Shown piece by piece: positions 1,735 through 45,906 of a stretch of 64,000 nt of DNA. A model generated the notes under the pieces. It ran no database searches, had not been told where the DNA came from, and saw nothing but the letters and a program-made list of their open reading frames with translations. The stretch covers positions 1 through 64,000 of the forward strand of contig CANJBZ010000012.1 in NCBI GenBank assembly GCA_947473475.1. Reading direction: 5' to 3'. Both the position numbers and the translations under genes were made by a program. Origin of the DNA: Alphaproteobacteria bacterium. Lineage in GTDB: Bacteria > Pseudomonadota > Alphaproteobacteria > Micropepsales > Micropepsaceae. Within the stretch, counting starts at the first letter, position 1, and each line of letters opens with the position of its first letter.

Positions 1735-2562
1735 ATGAGAAGCACGATCAAGGCCACGCTTGCCGCTGTCGTCCTGGCGATGAGCCTTGTCGGAACGGCG
1801 GTTGCCGGGCCGTTCGAGGATGGGTTTGCCGCTTTTGGTCGTGGCGACTACGCCACCGCGCTGCGGCTCTACCGTCCACTGGCTGATCAGGGCAATGCCG
1901 TGGCTCAGACCATGCTCGGCCACATGTACGGCAACGGCTGGGGCGTACCGAAGGACGATGCCCAGGCGGTGAAGTGGTATCGCCTCGCCGCTGATCAGGG
2001 CAATGCTGCGGCTCAGGCCTGGCTCGGCGGCATGTACGGCAACGGCCTAGGCGTTCCGCAGGATGATGCCCAGGCGGTGAAGTGGTTTCGCCTCGCCGCT
2101 GATCGGGGCAATGCCGACGCTCAGTACAACCTCGGGCTTATGTACTCCGTCGGCTGGGGCGTTCCGCAGGATGATGCCCAGGCGGTGATCTGGTATCGCC
2201 TCGCCGCCGACCAGGGCAACGCTGACGCCCAGAACAATCTCGGGTCTATGTACCGCAACGGCAAGGGCGTTCCGCAGGATTATGCCCAGGCGGTGAAGTG
2301 GTTTCGCCTCGCCGCTGATCAGGGCAATGCCGACGCTCAGACCCGTCTCGGGCTTGAGTACCGCATCGGCGAGGGCGTTCCGCAGGATTATGCCCAGGCG
2401 GTGAAGTGGTTTCGCCTCGCCGCTGATCGGGGCTATGCTGACGGCCAGTACAATCTCGGCACCATGTACTACTTCGGCCAAGGCGTTCCGCAGAACTATG
2501 GGAAATGTCGGCTTAATTGTCTCACGGATGCTTTGCGCCGCCCCGGTTATCCCCTACATTGA
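1735..2562 (+). CDS. Secreted Sel1-repeat (SLR) protein with truncated repeat array
   Basis: The ATG at 1735 follows GGAGGG and starts a clear Sec signal peptide (MRSTIKATLAAVVLAMSLVG, cleavage near AVAG). The mature part is a run of about six Sel1-like repeats of 36 residues, each with the pattern DDAQAVKW.RLAAD.GNA.AQ..LG..Y..G.GVPQ. Sel1 repeats form an alpha-solenoid used for protein-protein contacts, so an adaptor role in the periplasm or outside the cell is likely. The repeats are nearly identical at the DNA level (108-bp unit), which favours copy-number change. The seventh repeat stops after NYG and is replaced by a non-Sel1 tail of about 20 residues, so the array looks truncated by a deletion or junction near 2500. 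The length is 275 aa. Confidence 0.85.
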   Translation: MRSTIKATLAAVVLAMSLVGTAVAGPFEDGFAAFGRGDYATALRLYRPLADQGNAVAQTMLGHMYGNGWGVPKDDAQAVKWYRLAADQGNAAAQAWLGGMYGNGLGVPQDDAQAVKWFRLAADRGNADAQYNLGLMYSVGWGVPQDDAQAVIWYRLAADQGNADAQNNLGSMYRNGKGVPQDYAQAVKWFRLAADQGNADAQTRLGLEYRIGEGVPQDYAQAVKWFRLAADRGYADGQYNLGTMYYFGQGVPQNYGKCRLNCLTDALRRPGYPLH

Positions 2563-9605: not shown

Positions 9606-9676
9606 TGAGGTCTCCCGTTTCCCCGAGCATAGATAAGGCACCGGACCTGCGCCAGATACAGCGTTGCGGAAAAAGG

Positions 9677-9797
9677 GGTTACACAAAGGGCACGAAGAAG
9701 AAGCACAAAGAGCACAAAGAAAACTTTGTCGCGCTTTGCGCGCCAGAATCCGTTCTTCGTGTCCTTCGTGTTCGTTCTTCGTGCTCTTTGTGTAACC
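9677..9797. repeat. CACAAAG/CACGAAG-type imperfect palindrome, copy 1
   Basis: The left arm (9677-9722, starting GGTTACACAAAGGGCACGAAG) is complementary to the right arm (9752-9797, ending CTCTTTGTGTAACC). The centre carries GCGCTTTGCGCGCC. A related element, with the same centre in opposite orientation, lies at 43267-43489. It occupies most of the intergenic region 9606-9899 between the divergent MFS and MarR genes and therefore sits in or near both promoters. Confidence 0.8.
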
Positions 9798-9899
9798 TCT
9801 TCTTCGTTTCCGCGGCTCCGCGAGAAAAATCCTTCGGCCCCAATCTGGGAAACGGCAGTCAACAAAGCTAGTTTGGTGAGGCAATCGGGAGAGACGGCT

Positions 9900-42447: not shown

Positions 42448-43260
42448 ATGCGCGGATTTTCCTCTCCTGTATTGCTGCTTACGATCTGTGCCGCTACCGC
42501 TGCGGCACAGCCGGTGGCATCGCCGCCGGATTTTTCCTCGGGCGGCATTTCCTGGAACGGGATTGGTGGGGGCGATCTGCTTGCGGTGCCGGGTTCTCCG
42601 CCGCCGGTGTCGCAAGACCCGCGCTACAAATACACGCCGAACAATCTGGGCGCCCAGCCGACCTATCGCATCAGCGACATCACGAACCCCAACCTCAAAC
42701 AATGGGCCAAGGACGTGATGAAAAAGGACAACGACGAAGTCCTGGCGGGTAAGATCGCCTACACCGCGCGTTCTGCCTGCAAGCCGGGCGGTGTTCCGGG
42801 CTTCATTACGTTAGGCGGTGGCGCTTTGTATTTCGTCCAATCCCCCAAGGAAGTGACGATGATCTTCGACGGCAACGCGGAGACGCGGCACATTTATTTG
42901 AACGTGCCGCATGCGGCGAACCCGAGACCGTCCTGGTACGGCGATTCGATCGGCCATTACGAGGGCGACACGCTGGTGGTCGATACCATCGCGATGAATG
43001 ACAAGTCCTTCATCGACGCCTACCGCACGCCGCACACCAATAAGATTCACGTTACGGAGCGGTGGCGGTTGGTTGAAAACGGCCAGAAGCTGGACGTCGT
43101 CGCGACCATCGACGATCCCGACACCTTCAACAAACCCTGGCAGGCGTCACGCCAGTACCGGGTGGGAAGAAACCGCCCGCTGGAAGAAAACATCTGCGCC
43201 GAAAACAACAACAACCTATTCGACTACGGCACGCCGACCGCCAAGGCCCCCGATTTTTGA
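42448..43260 (+). CDS. Secreted hypothetical protein, paralog B
   Basis: The 270-aa protein has a signal peptide (MRGFSSPVLLLTICAATAAA) and shares with the protein at 39502-40338 the segments TYRISDITNPNLKQWAKDV, PSWYGDSIGHYEGDTLVVDT and the ending NLFDYG.P.AK.PDF. It starts 20 bp after the PQQ dehydrogenase with AGGAGG upstream, so it is in the same transcript. The function is unknown; the tight link to a quinoprotein suggests a role as electron-transfer or substrate-binding accessory, which is an inference. Confidence 0.75.
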   Translation: MRGFSSPVLLLTICAATAAAQPVASPPDFSSGGISWNGIGGGDLLAVPGSPPPVSQDPRYKYTPNNLGAQPTYRISDITNPNLKQWAKDVMKKDNDEVLAGKIAYTARSACKPGGVPGFITLGGGALYFVQSPKEVTMIFDGNAETRHIYLNVPHAANPRPSWYGDSIGHYEGDTLVVDTIAMNDKSFIDAYRTPHTNKIHVTERWRLVENGQKLDVVATIDDPDTFNKPWQASRQYRVGRNRPLEENICAENNNNLFDYGTPTAKAPDF

Positions 43261-43266
43261 TTGGTC

Positions 43267-43489
43267 CTCGCGGAGCCGCGGAGAATCGCGGAGGTAAGAA
43301 GAAGGGGAACCACAAAGGGCACGAAGGAGACACAAAGGACACAAAGTTTCTCGGAACCTTCTTAATTCTTGGGAGGTTGCGGTTGTGCCTGGCGCGCAAA
43401 GCGCGCCAATTTTCTCTTTGTGCTCTTGGTGTCTCCTTCGTGTCCTTTGTGGTTCCCCTTCTTCTCTGCGCTCTCCGCGCCTCCGCGAG
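43267..43489. repeat. CACAAAG/CACGAAG-type imperfect palindrome, copy 2
   Basis: The left arm (43267-43346) runs from CTCGCGGAG through GGGGAACCACAAAGGGCACGAAGG. It pairs with the right arm (43414-43489), which reads CCTTCGTGTCCTTTGTGGTTCCCC and ends CCTCCGCGAG. The middle GGCGCGCAAAGCGCGCC is shared in reverse with the copy at 9677-9797. This element is longer because it includes CGCGGAG-type outer arms; the first copy keeps only one (about 9812-9824). The element fills most of 43261-43531. Confidence 0.8.
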
Positions 43490-43531
43490 AGGCAACTTTT
43501 CTCTAGCACCGGCTCATGCCAAGGTGGCCAT

Positions 43532-43721: not shown

Positions 43722-44951
43722 TTACGGCCGCTTGGAACGGTCCACAGCCGCACCACGCAGATATACCGCCCAAATCTTGCGCGTGTTCTTGATGTCGTCG
43801 AGCGGGTTGGCGTCGAGCACCAGCAAGTCCGCGCTCTTGCCTGCTTCAATCGTACCGGCATCGCCCAGCCGCAGGAACTCCGCCGCAATCTTGGCGGAGG
43901 CGGTGATCACTTGCATAGGCGTCATGCCGGCGATGACCATGTCTTCCATTTCGATGTGTGGGCCATAAGAGGTGTTGCCGTCTTCGCCTTCGACGATCTT
44001 CACGCCGGCCGCTGTCAGCTTGGCGAGATTGCGCGCCTGGATGCCGTAAGCCGTCTGCGCCCGCTGATTGTCGACGTTCTCTTCCTGAACCTTCTGGAAT
44101 TCGGCTGCGGGAAGGCTCGCCTGCAGCCATGCCACGTCGGTCTTCACGCCACGGTCGGGCAGGTTGGGGTTCACCACCAGATTCGGACGCTGCTTCACCA
44201 GGGTCATGAACTCATCGTCCACGTCCTTGTCGCGCACGCTGTGGGCGAATGCGTCGACTCCGGCGCGCAGCAGGCCCTTGGCGTCTTCCAGGGTAAAGAT
44301 GTGTGCCGTCACGCGAAGGTTGTTCTTGTGGGCCTCGTCGATGATCGCCCCATAGAGCGCGGGCGTCAGCTTGGGATACATGCCGTTGCGGTCGTCCACC
44401 CAGATTTTCACGATGTCGACCTTGTTGGCCGCCAATTCCCGCACGACACCGCGCGCCTGTTCTTCCGTGTCGACCCAGAAGGGGGTGTTGTCGCGTCCGG
44501 GTTCGGGCCGCGTGATGCCGCGTCCGGCGCTGAGATAACGCGCCCCACCGGGGACGTTTTCGCCGCGGACGGGCAGCAGGTTGAACCCGTTGGTGCCCAT
44601 GCTCTGCGCGGTGCTGATTCCGTAATAGGCGCGCTGTTTCAGATCGCGGATCAGCCCGTCGCGGTTGTTCGTCAGATGCACATGCGTGTCCACGATCATG
44701 GGCATCACGGTCTTGCCCGCGAGATTCACGCGCGTGGCGCCCGCCGGAACCTGAACGCCTGTTGACGGTCCGACCTGCTGGATGCGCGCGCCATTGACGA
44801 TGATCGTGGCGTTCTCGATCGGCGCGCGGCCGTCGCCCACGATGACTCGGGCGCCTTCGTACGCGGTAATCTGCGCGCTAGCAGAGTTCGATGTCGCGGA
44901 AAGCGCGAGGCCTACACTCGCGGCCAGTGCAAATGTCTTCAAAAGACGCAT
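43722..44951 (-). CDS. Periplasmic metal-dependent amidohydrolase
   Basis: The ATG at 44951 follows GGGAGGGA and starts a signal peptide ending NSASAQ. The 409-aa protein has amidohydrolase features: a urease-like N-terminal beta domain (YEGARVIVGDGR), VDTHVHL (the HxH zinc pair), VTAHIF, VDAFAHSV and a C-terminal ALEAGK..DLLVLDANPLDD equivalent. Relatives include imidazolonepropionase-like and prolidase-like secreted hydrolases. The ligands His, His and late Asp are in place by eye. The substrate is not known. Confidence 0.85.
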   Translation of the reverse strand: MRLLKTFALAASVGLALSATSNSASAQITAYEGARVIVGDGRAPIENATIIVNGARIQQVGPSTGVQVPAGATRVNLAGKTVMPMIVDTHVHLTNNRDGLIRDLKQRAYYGISTAQSMGTNGFNLLPVRGENVPGGARYLSAGRGITRPEPGRDNTPFWVDTEEQARGVVRELAANKVDIVKIWVDDRNGMYPKLTPALYGAIIDEAHKNNLRVTAHIFTLEDAKGLLRAGVDAFAHSVRDKDVDDEFMTLVKQRPNLVVNPNLPDRGVKTDVAWLQASLPAAEFQKVQEENVDNQRAQTAYGIQARNLAKLTAAGVKIVEGEDGNTSYGPHIEMEDMVIAGMTPMQVITASAKIAAEFLRLGDAGTIEAGKSADLLVLDANPLDDIKNTRKIWAVYLRGAAVDRSKRP

Positions 44952-45105
44952 GAAATCCCTCCCAGGAAAAATCGGCGGCACTTTAGCGGGGAGAACCGCA
45001 AGGCGGGAGTGGCAGGCTGGCGGTCGGAAGCGGGTGTCATGGCAGCAGGGCGCGCATTGGAGTAGTTTGGCGGTCGATGGGACGCCTGTTTTGCAGCGTT
45101 TCCGG

Positions 45106-45906
45106 ATGGAGAACCGCTTGGCTCTGTTCAAACCGGGACTTGTTTTCAGCCGCCGACACTTTCTCGTGAGCGGCGCGGCCAGTCTCGTTTTGGCCGGCTG
45201 CGACCGGCTTTCGTCCGCGCCGTCGTTTCAGCAGCTTCTACGGGCGGCAGAGGGCATGAGCTACGGCGCGCAACGCTCACTGATTCCAAGGGACGCGCTG
45301 GCGCCGGAATACAGTCCGCGCGACGTGTCGCATCCGTTCAGGGCCAATGGTTCGCAGGACAGCTACAACCTCGACCCCGCCTATCTGGAACACGCCAAAG
45401 ACAAATATGCGCGCTGGCAGGTGAAGGTGGATGGGCTCGTCATGCGGCCCTCCGCGTTTTCGCTGACCGATTTGCGCGGCCTGGGAACGCGCTCGCAGAT
45501 CACCCGCCACGATTGCGTGGAGGGCTGGAGCGCCATCGGAAGCTGGACCGGAACGCCGCTTTCCGCCGTGCTGCAGAAGGTGGGTCTACGTCCGAAGGCG
45601 CGGTTCATCGTCTTCCACTGCGCCGACGAGCAGCTTCGCTATCAGGAAGGCACGCACACCTATTATGAAAGCATTGATCTGATCGATGCGTTTCATCCGC
45701 AGACCATTCTCGCCTACGAGCTGAACGGCGAGCCGTTGCCGCTGGCCAATGGCGCGCCGCTGCGTCTGCGCGTGGAACGGCAGCTCGGTTACAAGATGGC
45801 GAAGTTCATCGTGCGCATCGAAGCGGTTGACCGCATCGACACTATTCGCGGCGGCCACGGCGGCTATTGGGAAGACGACGGCTACGAGTGGTACGCGGGG
45901 ATTTAG
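45106..45906 (+). CDS. SUOX-family molybdopterin oxidoreductase, Tat-exported lipoprotein
   Basis: The 266-aa protein has a twin-arginine signal (SRRHFLVSGA) that leads directly into a lipobox (LAGC, Cys about residue 32), so it is probably exported folded and lipid-anchored. The Mo-cofactor domain contains TRHDCVEGW, whose Cys ligates Mo in sulfite-oxidase-type enzymes, and HTYYESIDL. The domain is compact and without the heme or dimerisation domain of full sulfite oxidases, similar to YedY (MsrP) in size. No MsrQ-like membrane heme partner is adjacent. The natural substrate is unknown. Confidence 0.82.
   Translation: MENRLALFKPGLVFSRRHFLVSGAASLVLAGCDRLSSAPSFQQLLRAAEGMSYGAQRSLIPRDALAPEYSPRDVSHPFRANGSQDSYNLDPAYLEHAKDKYARWQVKVDGLVMRPSAFSLTDLRGLGTRSQITRHDCVEGWSAIGSWTGTPLSAVLQKVGLRPKARFIVFHCADEQLRYQEGTHTYYESIDLIDAFHPQTILAYELNGEPLPLANGAPLRLRVERQLGYKMAKFIVRIEAVDRIDTIRGGHGGYWEDDGYEWYAGI

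What the first reader, a model, noticed from the sequence alone, without database searches (positions are those of the whole stretch)
9677..9797. CACAAAG/CACGAAG palindrome at the MarR-controlled divergent promoter
A large imperfect palindrome occupies the intergenic space between the divergent MFS-UbiD and MarR genes. A related element with inverted centre lies 33 kb away. It may have inserted into a regulatory region and altered control, or it may itself carry promoter or RNA-structure activity. Elements of this type are scattered in many phyla and their origin is not clear to me.
Basis: partly seen in the sequence, partly recalled or inferred. Interest (0 to 1): 0.5.

Follow-up and report, generated by a model that had tools for sequence, protein, structure and literature searches.

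The report
Nuclease-linked mobile palindromic repeat element
The palindrome is one of dozens of gene-less copies of a small repeat element that turns up in many bacteria and some archaea, and elsewhere the same kind of repeat surrounds the gene of a small uncharacterised nuclease, which suggests, without proving it, how such repeats arise and spread.

Summary
Confirmed, and wider than described. Window 9669-9805 is a 137-nt palindrome of inverted tandem CACRAAG heptamers. Its genome has 111 hits of the double heptamer (0 for the reversed control) and at least 42 elements. The element is missing from the same divergent gap in two congeners, and six congeners carry 0-1 CACRAAG hits each. The genome's single GxxExxY gene (PDDEXK_3, PD-(D/E)XK fold) lies in the loop of one copy. 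This generalises: of 103 GxxExxY loci (about eleven phyla by record title), 71 have CRCNNAG-type heptamer chains on both sides, inverted; controls gave 3 of 550 pseudo-genes, 2 of 515 shuffles, 0 of 20 Y1-transposase loci. Heptamer type matches between sides, agrees with the genome's other arrays, and tracks the protein weakly. Best reading: a non-autonomous mobile palindrome related to GxxExxY-bearing elements; that the nuclease moves it is inferred. Against: no target-site duplication, gene copies within a genome diverged, 8 of 24 array-rich genomes without the gene. Closest architecture: 23S rRNA intervening sequences with S23 genes. Ten open-access paper searches showed no description.

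The parts
9669..9805 (.). palindromic element, copy 1 (gene-less), 137 nt
   Evidence: member of a family of at least 42 copies
9669..9734 (+). left arm: AAAAAGGGGTTA end followed by CACRAAG heptamers at 9682, 9691, 9704, 9713
9740..9805 (-). right arm: inverted heptamers at 9755, 9764, 9777, 9786, end TAACCTCTTCTTC
9730..9742 (.). centre hairpin CGCGC-TTT-GCGCG; a strict form of this centre is found in 17 of 42 copies
43299..43463 (.). palindromic element, copy 2, 165 nt, 39 nt after the stop codon of ORF 42448-43260 (+), facing ORF 43722-45131 (-)
43266..43298 (+). outer left array of CGCGGAG-type heptamers beside copy 2
43464..43491 (-). outer right array of CGCGGAG-type heptamers beside copy 2
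9622..9635 (.). stretch CCCGAGCATAGATA kept in G001 on the MFS-gene side of the insertion
9861..9875 (.). dyad AACAAAGCTAGTTTG next to the marR start, kept in G001; possible MarR operator (inference)

Best explanation
The palindrome is a gene-less, non-autonomous copy of a mobile element whose two arms are inverted tandem arrays of a heptamer (here CACRAAG; generally CRCNNAG). Other copies, one in this genome, carry in the loop between the arms a gene for a small PD-(D/E)XK protein, GxxExxY. SHOWN: the family, its size classes, its lineage-specific abundance, its absence from the same site in two congeners, the position of GxxExxY genes between matched inverted arrays in about eleven phyla, and the agreement of heptamer type between the two sides of the gene and with the genome's other arrays. 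INFERRED: GxxExxY, or a complex that contains it, recognises the heptamers (as duplex, or as an extruded hairpin or single strand) and cuts there, so that both gene-bearing and gene-less palindromes are copied or moved into gaps between genes, mostly just behind stop codons. Once landed, the hairpin with a T-run on both strands probably works as a harmless two-way terminator, which would let it persist; at 9669 it separates two divergent promoters. That it terminates transcription is not shown.
For: At least 42 copies with common ends and quantised lengths (98-99, 106-109, 124-130, 161-168, 197-219; gene-bearing 501 nt; lengths from the 35 of 42 copies with both arms alignable). 59+52 hits against 0 for the reversed control; six congeners have 0,0,0,1,0,0. 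The same gap is 148 and 152 nt shorter in G001 and G003. The single PF13366 match of the genome (E 9e-39) is at C2:195279-195626, inside a copy at C2:195188-195688 with the family's ends. Of 103 GxxExxY loci with at least 150 nt on both sides, heptamer chains on both sides in 71, one side 22, none 10; wrong orientation 10/31/62; shuffles 2/22/491 of 515; pseudo-gene positions in the same loci 3/64/483 of 550; Y1_Tnp loci 0 of 20, Mrr loci 0 of 23 with the same flanks (1 of 20 and 1 of 23 with wider flanks). Heptamer profile distance between sides 0.54 against 1.79 when loci are re-paired (p 1e-4). Protein distance against heptamer distance: Mantel rho 0.26, 0.14 for between-phylum pairs with GC partialled out (p 0.001). 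Array-rich genomes have PF13366 in 16 of 24, others in 10 of 72 (p 2e-6). In 20 genomes chosen by the heptamer of their GxxExxY locus, the genome-wide arrays lean the same way (p 6.5e-4). Heptamer letters 98.5% conserved against 66% for the spacer, while the arms of one copy are no more alike than arms of different copies (0.786 v 0.791, p 0.75), which speaks for recognition of sequence, not for maintenance of base pairing. Conserved D62, E72, K74, Q86; confident PD-(D/E)XK-type model (pLDDT 95.8). No Y1_Tnp (RAYT-type) gene in this genome nor in 13 others of 29 searched. One pair of copies in another genome is 93% identical over 131 nt with flanks that look unrelated.
Against: No excess of direct repeats at the ends of 35 copies, so no target-site duplication. 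GxxExxY copies within one genome are only 39-75% identical (8 genomes compared): no sign that the gene-bearing form has moved recently. 8 of 24 array-rich genomes have no PF13366 match, one of them a complete single-contig genome with 65 array hits (G067). 10 of 103 GxxExxY loci have no chain on either side, and some of the 71 rest on chains that look weak by eye (for example L098, L142, L180, L181 upstream). One CGCGGAG palindrome carries an Mrr gene instead. The protein-heptamer link is modest: the nearest protein of another phylum shares the consensus heptamer in 12 of 71 against 6.1 expected (sd 2.3). Nothing here shows binding, cleavage or movement.
Confidence: 0.5

Rival explanations
1. 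The arrays are a mobile or copied repeat spread by another enzyme or by replication, and GxxExxY is a passenger or a homing-like gene that settles in the loop of palindromes (as S23 in hairpin tips of 23S rRNA, or the one Mrr gene found).
For: Arrays without GxxExxY in 8 of 24 array-rich genomes; an Mrr gene in a CGCGGAG palindrome of a genome without PF13366; gene-bearing copies of one genome are diverged; S23 genes have a similar setting with another unit.
Against: Heptamer type agrees between the two sides, with the genome's other arrays and, weakly, with the protein; Mrr loci otherwise lack arrays (1 of 23); no alternative enzyme was identified, and Y1_Tnp is absent from this genome and 13 others of 29.
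Confidence: 0.27
2. The palindromes are host-useful sites, above all two-way transcription terminators or RNA-processing hairpins, and are kept and multiplied for that use, not as selfish DNA.
For: 20 of 39 elements lie between convergent genes against 32 of 207 background gene pairs (p 4e-6) and only 2 between divergent genes (ORF heuristics, one further element undetermined, the two window copies not counted); most lie 10-60 nt from a gene end; conserved A-run and T-run outside the hairpin on both strands; extreme hairpin stability.
Against: Six congeners do without the CACRAAG type; the copy in the window sits between divergent genes; pairing within a copy is not better kept than between copies; the terminator scan did not call the element itself (its rules allow short loops only).
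Confidence: 0.13
3. It spreads through RNA, as a relative of 23S rRNA intervening sequences: transcribed hairpins inserted at hairpin tips and copied back into DNA.
For: Same anatomy as intervening sequences (small gene between inverted arms); 15 of 18 CGCGGAG double-heptamer hits of this genome lie within about 40 nt of, or inside, a CACRAAG element, as if one palindrome was set into another (compared by hand).
Against: No reverse transcriptase link was looked for or seen; the conserved part is the heptamer sequence, not the pairing.
Confidence: 0.05
4. The sequence is the ancestral MarR operator region, not an inserted element.
For: Position in the marR promoter gap.
Against: At least 42 copies elsewhere in the genome and absence from the orthologous gap of G001 and G003.
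Confidence: 0.02

Closest known systems
23S rRNA intervening sequences (IVS) with the S23 / IVP gene (PF05635); passages of PMC4990558 seen
   Same: Small gene between inverted arms that form a long hairpin; sporadic distribution; origin and mobility unexplained. In 12 S23 loci of the same order I see inverted arrays by eye in about ten, with another unit (GCGARTAG, TGAGTAG, or CAGATATCAGATG in the two that lie in 23S rRNA).
   Different: Other protein fold family, other repeat unit, not in rRNA, and dozens of gene-less copies between protein genes.
REP / REPIN with RAYT (Y1) transposases, and TIRtrons; passages of PMC3733652 seen, others only in a search listing
   Same: Many intergenic palindromes per genome, a single related gene flanked by the same repeat, proposed movement in trans.
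   Different: Arms are tandem heptamer arrays; the linked gene is a PD-(D/E)XK protein; no Y1_Tnp gene in this genome.
MITEs, in particular the hupL MITE family of Thiomargarita proposed to derive from a PD-(D/E)XK_2 element; passages of PMC4853749 seen
   Same: Gene-less inverted-repeat element with a proposed PD-(D/E)XK parent.
   Different: That parent is a YhgA-type PD-(D/E)XK_2 protein, with 10-bp direct repeats and 19-bp inverted repeats; here there is no direct repeat at the ends and the arms are tandem heptamers.
GxxExxY protein family (TIGR04256; PF13366 PDDEXK_3)
   Same: The gene in the loop is a full member (TIGR04256 E 6.5e-41; PF13366 E 3e-39).
   Different: No role or repeat context for the family appeared in the two papers that my search for its name returned.

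Membership tests
REP/RAYT system | Y1 (HUH) transposase gene in the genome | tested here: not met
   PF01797: no match in G000; 15 of 29 genomes have one
REP/RAYT system | short 20-40 nt palindrome with GTAG or CGTC tag | tested here: not met
   Elements 98-219 nt, ends AAAAAGGGG(A/T)A, heptamer arrays; the definition is from PMC3733652 (abstract passages)
MITE of a classical transposon | terminal inverted repeats | tested here: met
   Common inverted ends in 35 of 42 copies aligned on both arms
MITE of a classical transposon | target-site duplication | tested here: not met
   Longest direct repeats at the ends no longer than with re-paired flanks, 35 copies
MITE of a classical transposon | parent transposase with the same ends | tested here: inconclusive
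   One copy with the same ends holds GxxExxY, a nuclease-fold protein, not a known transposase
23S rRNA intervening sequence | lies in rRNA | tested here: not met
   Intergenic between protein genes; the only Rfam match in the window is a tRNA
23S rRNA intervening sequence | S23 gene in the loop | tested here: not met
   The loop gene is PF13366; the genome's S23 gene (C2:46963-47277) has no CACRAAG array beside it
23S rRNA intervening sequence | excision of the hairpin by RNase III | not testable with these tools
   needs RNA work
PD-(D/E)XK nucleases | catalytic D ... (D/E)xK in the right fold | tested here: met
   D62, K74, Q86 invariant, E72 in at least 90% of 28 sequences; Pfam PDDEXK_3; best VIA-align Z 9.4 to Cas4-like SSO0001, 8.2 to 3ijm, 7.2 to Hjc; Foldseek best E 0.012, none at or below 0.001
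PD-(D/E)XK nucleases | nuclease activity | not testable with these tools
   biochemistry needed

The most novel reading that the evidence does not exclude
A phylum-spanning class of selfish hairpin elements in which a small gene sits in the loop of a palindrome built from tandem copies of the very motif its product recognises: GxxExxY with a CRCNNAG code that diversifies together with the protein, S23 with a GCGARTAG-type code. Gene-less copies spread by the hundred, and the long-known 23S rRNA intervening sequences are only the special case that landed in rRNA.
Probability: 0.33. Interest if true: 0.9.

Novelty: new variant of a known kind. Interest (0 to 1): 0.7.

Why it matters
GxxExxY is a widespread family named after a motif because its role is unknown, and the heptamer palindromes are widespread unnamed repeats. 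Placing one inside the other gives both a testable role: a small nuclease with its own recognition array, and a source for gene-less palindromes that sit behind genes as potential two-way terminators. The many natural pairs of protein and heptamer are ready material for working out a recognition code. It also gives the 23S rRNA intervening sequences, whose origin is unsettled, possible relatives outside rRNA.

Tried and rejected
Rfam: only a tRNA in the window. RAYT as mover: no Y1_Tnp in this genome. Mrr as a regular second cargo: only 1 of 23 Mrr loci has arrays. Target-site duplication: none; a possible direct repeat beside L246 was seen by eye only and is not claimed. Compensatory pairing within copies: none. 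Recent copying of GxxExxY within genomes: not seen. Phages: no tblastn match in 50,697 records with one query protein; plasmids: 8 of 72,556 records. PDB by sequence: one weak Cas4-family match, E 0.78. A local-alignment score of upstream against downstream flank was positive but cruder than the chain test (43 of 103 above the 99th percentile of cross pairs, 21 above their maximum). For S23 the same score separates same-locus (median 37.5) from cross pairs (median 19) poorly at the top (cross maximum 55), because the S23 arrays of different loci share one unit. Papers, ten searches: no description of heptamer palindromes with GxxExxY; only an open-access library was searched, and five papers were seen in passages, the rest as listings.

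Limits: the GxxExxY set is capped (best 80 of 574 confirmed stretches, plus 30 loci of the own order); 7 of the 110 were dropped before the count for flanks under 150 nt. The list of array places in the own genome was capped at 100 of 111, so 42 is a minimum. Phyla were assigned by me from record titles. Gene context rests on a home-made ORF caller.

Full report
OBSERVATION. The palindrome at 9669-9805 is real, far beyond chance, and folds as a near-perfect hairpin on either strand. A second copy lies at 43299-43463. The pattern CACRAAGNNCACRAAG occurs 111 times in the 3.87-Mb genome and never in reversed form. From the 100 listed places I fetched 39 stretches with hits and, with the window, counted 42 elements. 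Their plan is AAAAAGGGGAAC-CACAAAG-nn-CACRAAG-nnnn-CACRAAG-nn-CACAAAG, a centre that is often GGCGCGC-nnn-GCGCGCC (strict form in 17 of 42 copies), then the mirror image ending in CTTTGTGGTTCCCCTTTTT. The window copy belongs to a minority with GGGGTTA/GGGGTAA ends. In the 35 copies with both arms alignable, lengths fall in classes (98-99, 106-109, 124-130, 161-168, 197-219, and 501 nt for the gene-bearing copy).

INSERTION. Six congeners have 0-1 hits of the pattern. In G001 and G003 the marR/MFS gap is 148 and 152 nt shorter, and the ends of the gap in G001 keep CCCGAGCATAGATA and the dyad next to marR. The simplest reading is an insertion in the window's lineage; loss elsewhere is not excluded. 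No target-site duplication is visible in 35 copies. Of 40 elements in the fetched stretches, 20 lie between convergent genes, 17 between tandem genes, 2 between divergent genes, 1 undetermined; 32 of 207 background pairs are convergent. The window copy is thus at an unusual place. CGCGGAG-type arrays, rare in this genome (18 strict hits), lie within about 40 nt of, or inside, CACRAAG elements in 15 of 18 cases (coordinates compared by hand), which suggests nesting or composite elements.

THE GENE IN THE LOOP. From memory I suspected GxxExxY and S23 genes, and tested both. The genome has one PF13366 match, exactly between the arms of one copy, a GxxExxY protein. Its S23 gene has no CACRAAG array. 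In 96 genomes of the order, 26 have PF13366; looking at 30 loci, I saw inverted arrays around most, with locus-specific heptamers (CACAAAG, CGCGGAG, CGCAGAG, CGCCAAG, CACTGAG). Eighty named loci, the best of 574, were added, from about eleven phyla by title, archaea included.

STATISTICS. With one rule (two or more CRCNNNG heptamers, 8-14 nt apart, at most one difference between neighbours, within 300 nt), 71 of 103 loci have chains on both sides in the inverted sense, 22 on one side and 10 on none; wrong orientation 10, 31 and 62; shuffles 2, 22 and 491 of 515; pseudo-gene positions in the same loci 3, 64 and 483 of 550. Other genes in array-rich genomes: Y1_Tnp 0 of 20, Mrr 0 of 23 with the same flanks; 1 of 20 (unconvincing) and 1 of 23 (real) with wider flanks. 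In the 71 loci, position 1, 3 and 7 are fixed by the rule itself, but A at position 6 (367 of 408 heptamers) and R at position 5 (402 of 408) are not. The two sides agree in heptamer (0.54 against 1.79, p 1e-4). Protein distance and heptamer distance correlate (rho 0.26; 0.14 between phyla with GC partialled out, p 0.001), a weak but significant link. The nearest protein from another phylum shares the consensus heptamer in 12 of 71 against 6.1 expected.

GENOME-WIDE AGREEMENT. Of 96 genomes, 24 have ten or more hits of CACRAAG or CGCGGAG double heptamers; 16 of these have PF13366, against 10 of the other 72 (counted by hand). Some carry hundreds of hits (G048: 174 forward, 155 reverse, with one GxxExxY gene). 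Eight array-rich genomes have none, G067 as a complete genome among them. I picked 20 named genomes by the heptamer of their GxxExxY locus: CGCAAAG-type genomes have more CGCAAAG than CACAGAG arrays in 9 of 10 (exception G098, 6 against 33); CACAGAG-type genomes the reverse in 8 of 10, with 2 ties (G113, G114); in one of the 8 (G111) the count, 4, does not exceed its control, 5 (p 6.5e-4). The locus's own array is included in these counts.

WHAT IS CONSERVED. Fixed heptamer letters are 98.5% conserved over 70 arms, the spacer 66%; the two arms of a copy are no more alike than arms of different copies (0.786 against 0.791, p 0.75). The sequence of the heptamers is kept, the exact pairing is not. 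This favours recognition by a protein and speaks against selection on a precise RNA structure.

THE PROTEIN. 28 aligned sequences keep D62, E72, K74 and Q86. The model is confident (pLDDT 95.8) and resembles PD-(D/E)XK proteins: Cas4-like SSO0001 (Z 9.4), a restriction-endonuclease-like protein (3ijm, Z 8.2), AF1548 (8.1) and, lower, Hjc resolvase (7.2); Foldseek gives no match at E 0.001 or below. The fold is thus supported, the substrate open. A cut at hairpins or cruciforms would suit the setting, but this is inference.

MECHANISM. Most likely the palindrome moves as DNA with the help of GxxExxY acting on the heptamer arrays; steps shown and inferred are separated in Best explanation. Results against it are the missing duplication, the divergence of GxxExxY copies within genomes (39-75%), array-rich genomes without the gene, and one Mrr cargo. 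One pair of copies 93% identical over 131 nt in different surroundings shows that copying is recent in at least one genome (G102).

COMPARISON. It works like REP/RAYT or MITE/parent pairs but fails their defining features where tested (Y1 gene, duplication). The nearest anatomy is that of 23S rRNA intervening sequences. In this order 12 of 96 genomes have S23 genes; about ten of the 12 loci examined show inverted arrays of another unit by eye, and two lie in 23S rRNA. A PD-(D/E)XK parent for a MITE has been proposed once to my knowledge, for Thiomargarita (PMC4853749, passages). Ten searches of an open-access library showed no account of the present system, which is no proof that none exists.

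Noticed in passing
L032, L205-L215 (PF05635 loci of the order): S23/IVP genes outside rRNA lie between inverted arrays of another unit (GCGARTAG / TGAGTAG) by eye in about ten of 12 loci; in two loci (L212, L213) the gene lies in 23S rRNA with a CAGATATCAGATG-type unit.
   Followed up: partly
L217:711-1810 (G020:C1:54210-55309): A CGCGGAG palindrome carries an Mrr restriction endonuclease gene (PF04471 E 6e-35) in its loop, in a genome without PF13366; no such array at 22 other Mrr loci.
   Followed up: yes
window 43266-43491; L046, L064 and others: CGCGGAG-type outer arrays enclose or adjoin CACRAAG elements: 15 of 18 strict CGCGGAG hits of the genome lie within about 40 nt of, or inside, one, as if one palindrome were nested in another.
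   Followed up: partly
L245, L246 (G102): Two CGCAAAG-type copies 93% identical over 131 nt with flanks that look unrelated: good material for finding exact ends.
   Followed up: partly
G048: 329 CGCGGAG double-heptamer hits with a single GxxExxY gene: the most heavily colonised genome of the 96 searched.
   Followed up: no
window 1882-2493: Tandem repeat with a 108-base period, 5.7 copies, 81% matches, probably inside a repeat protein gene.
   Followed up: no
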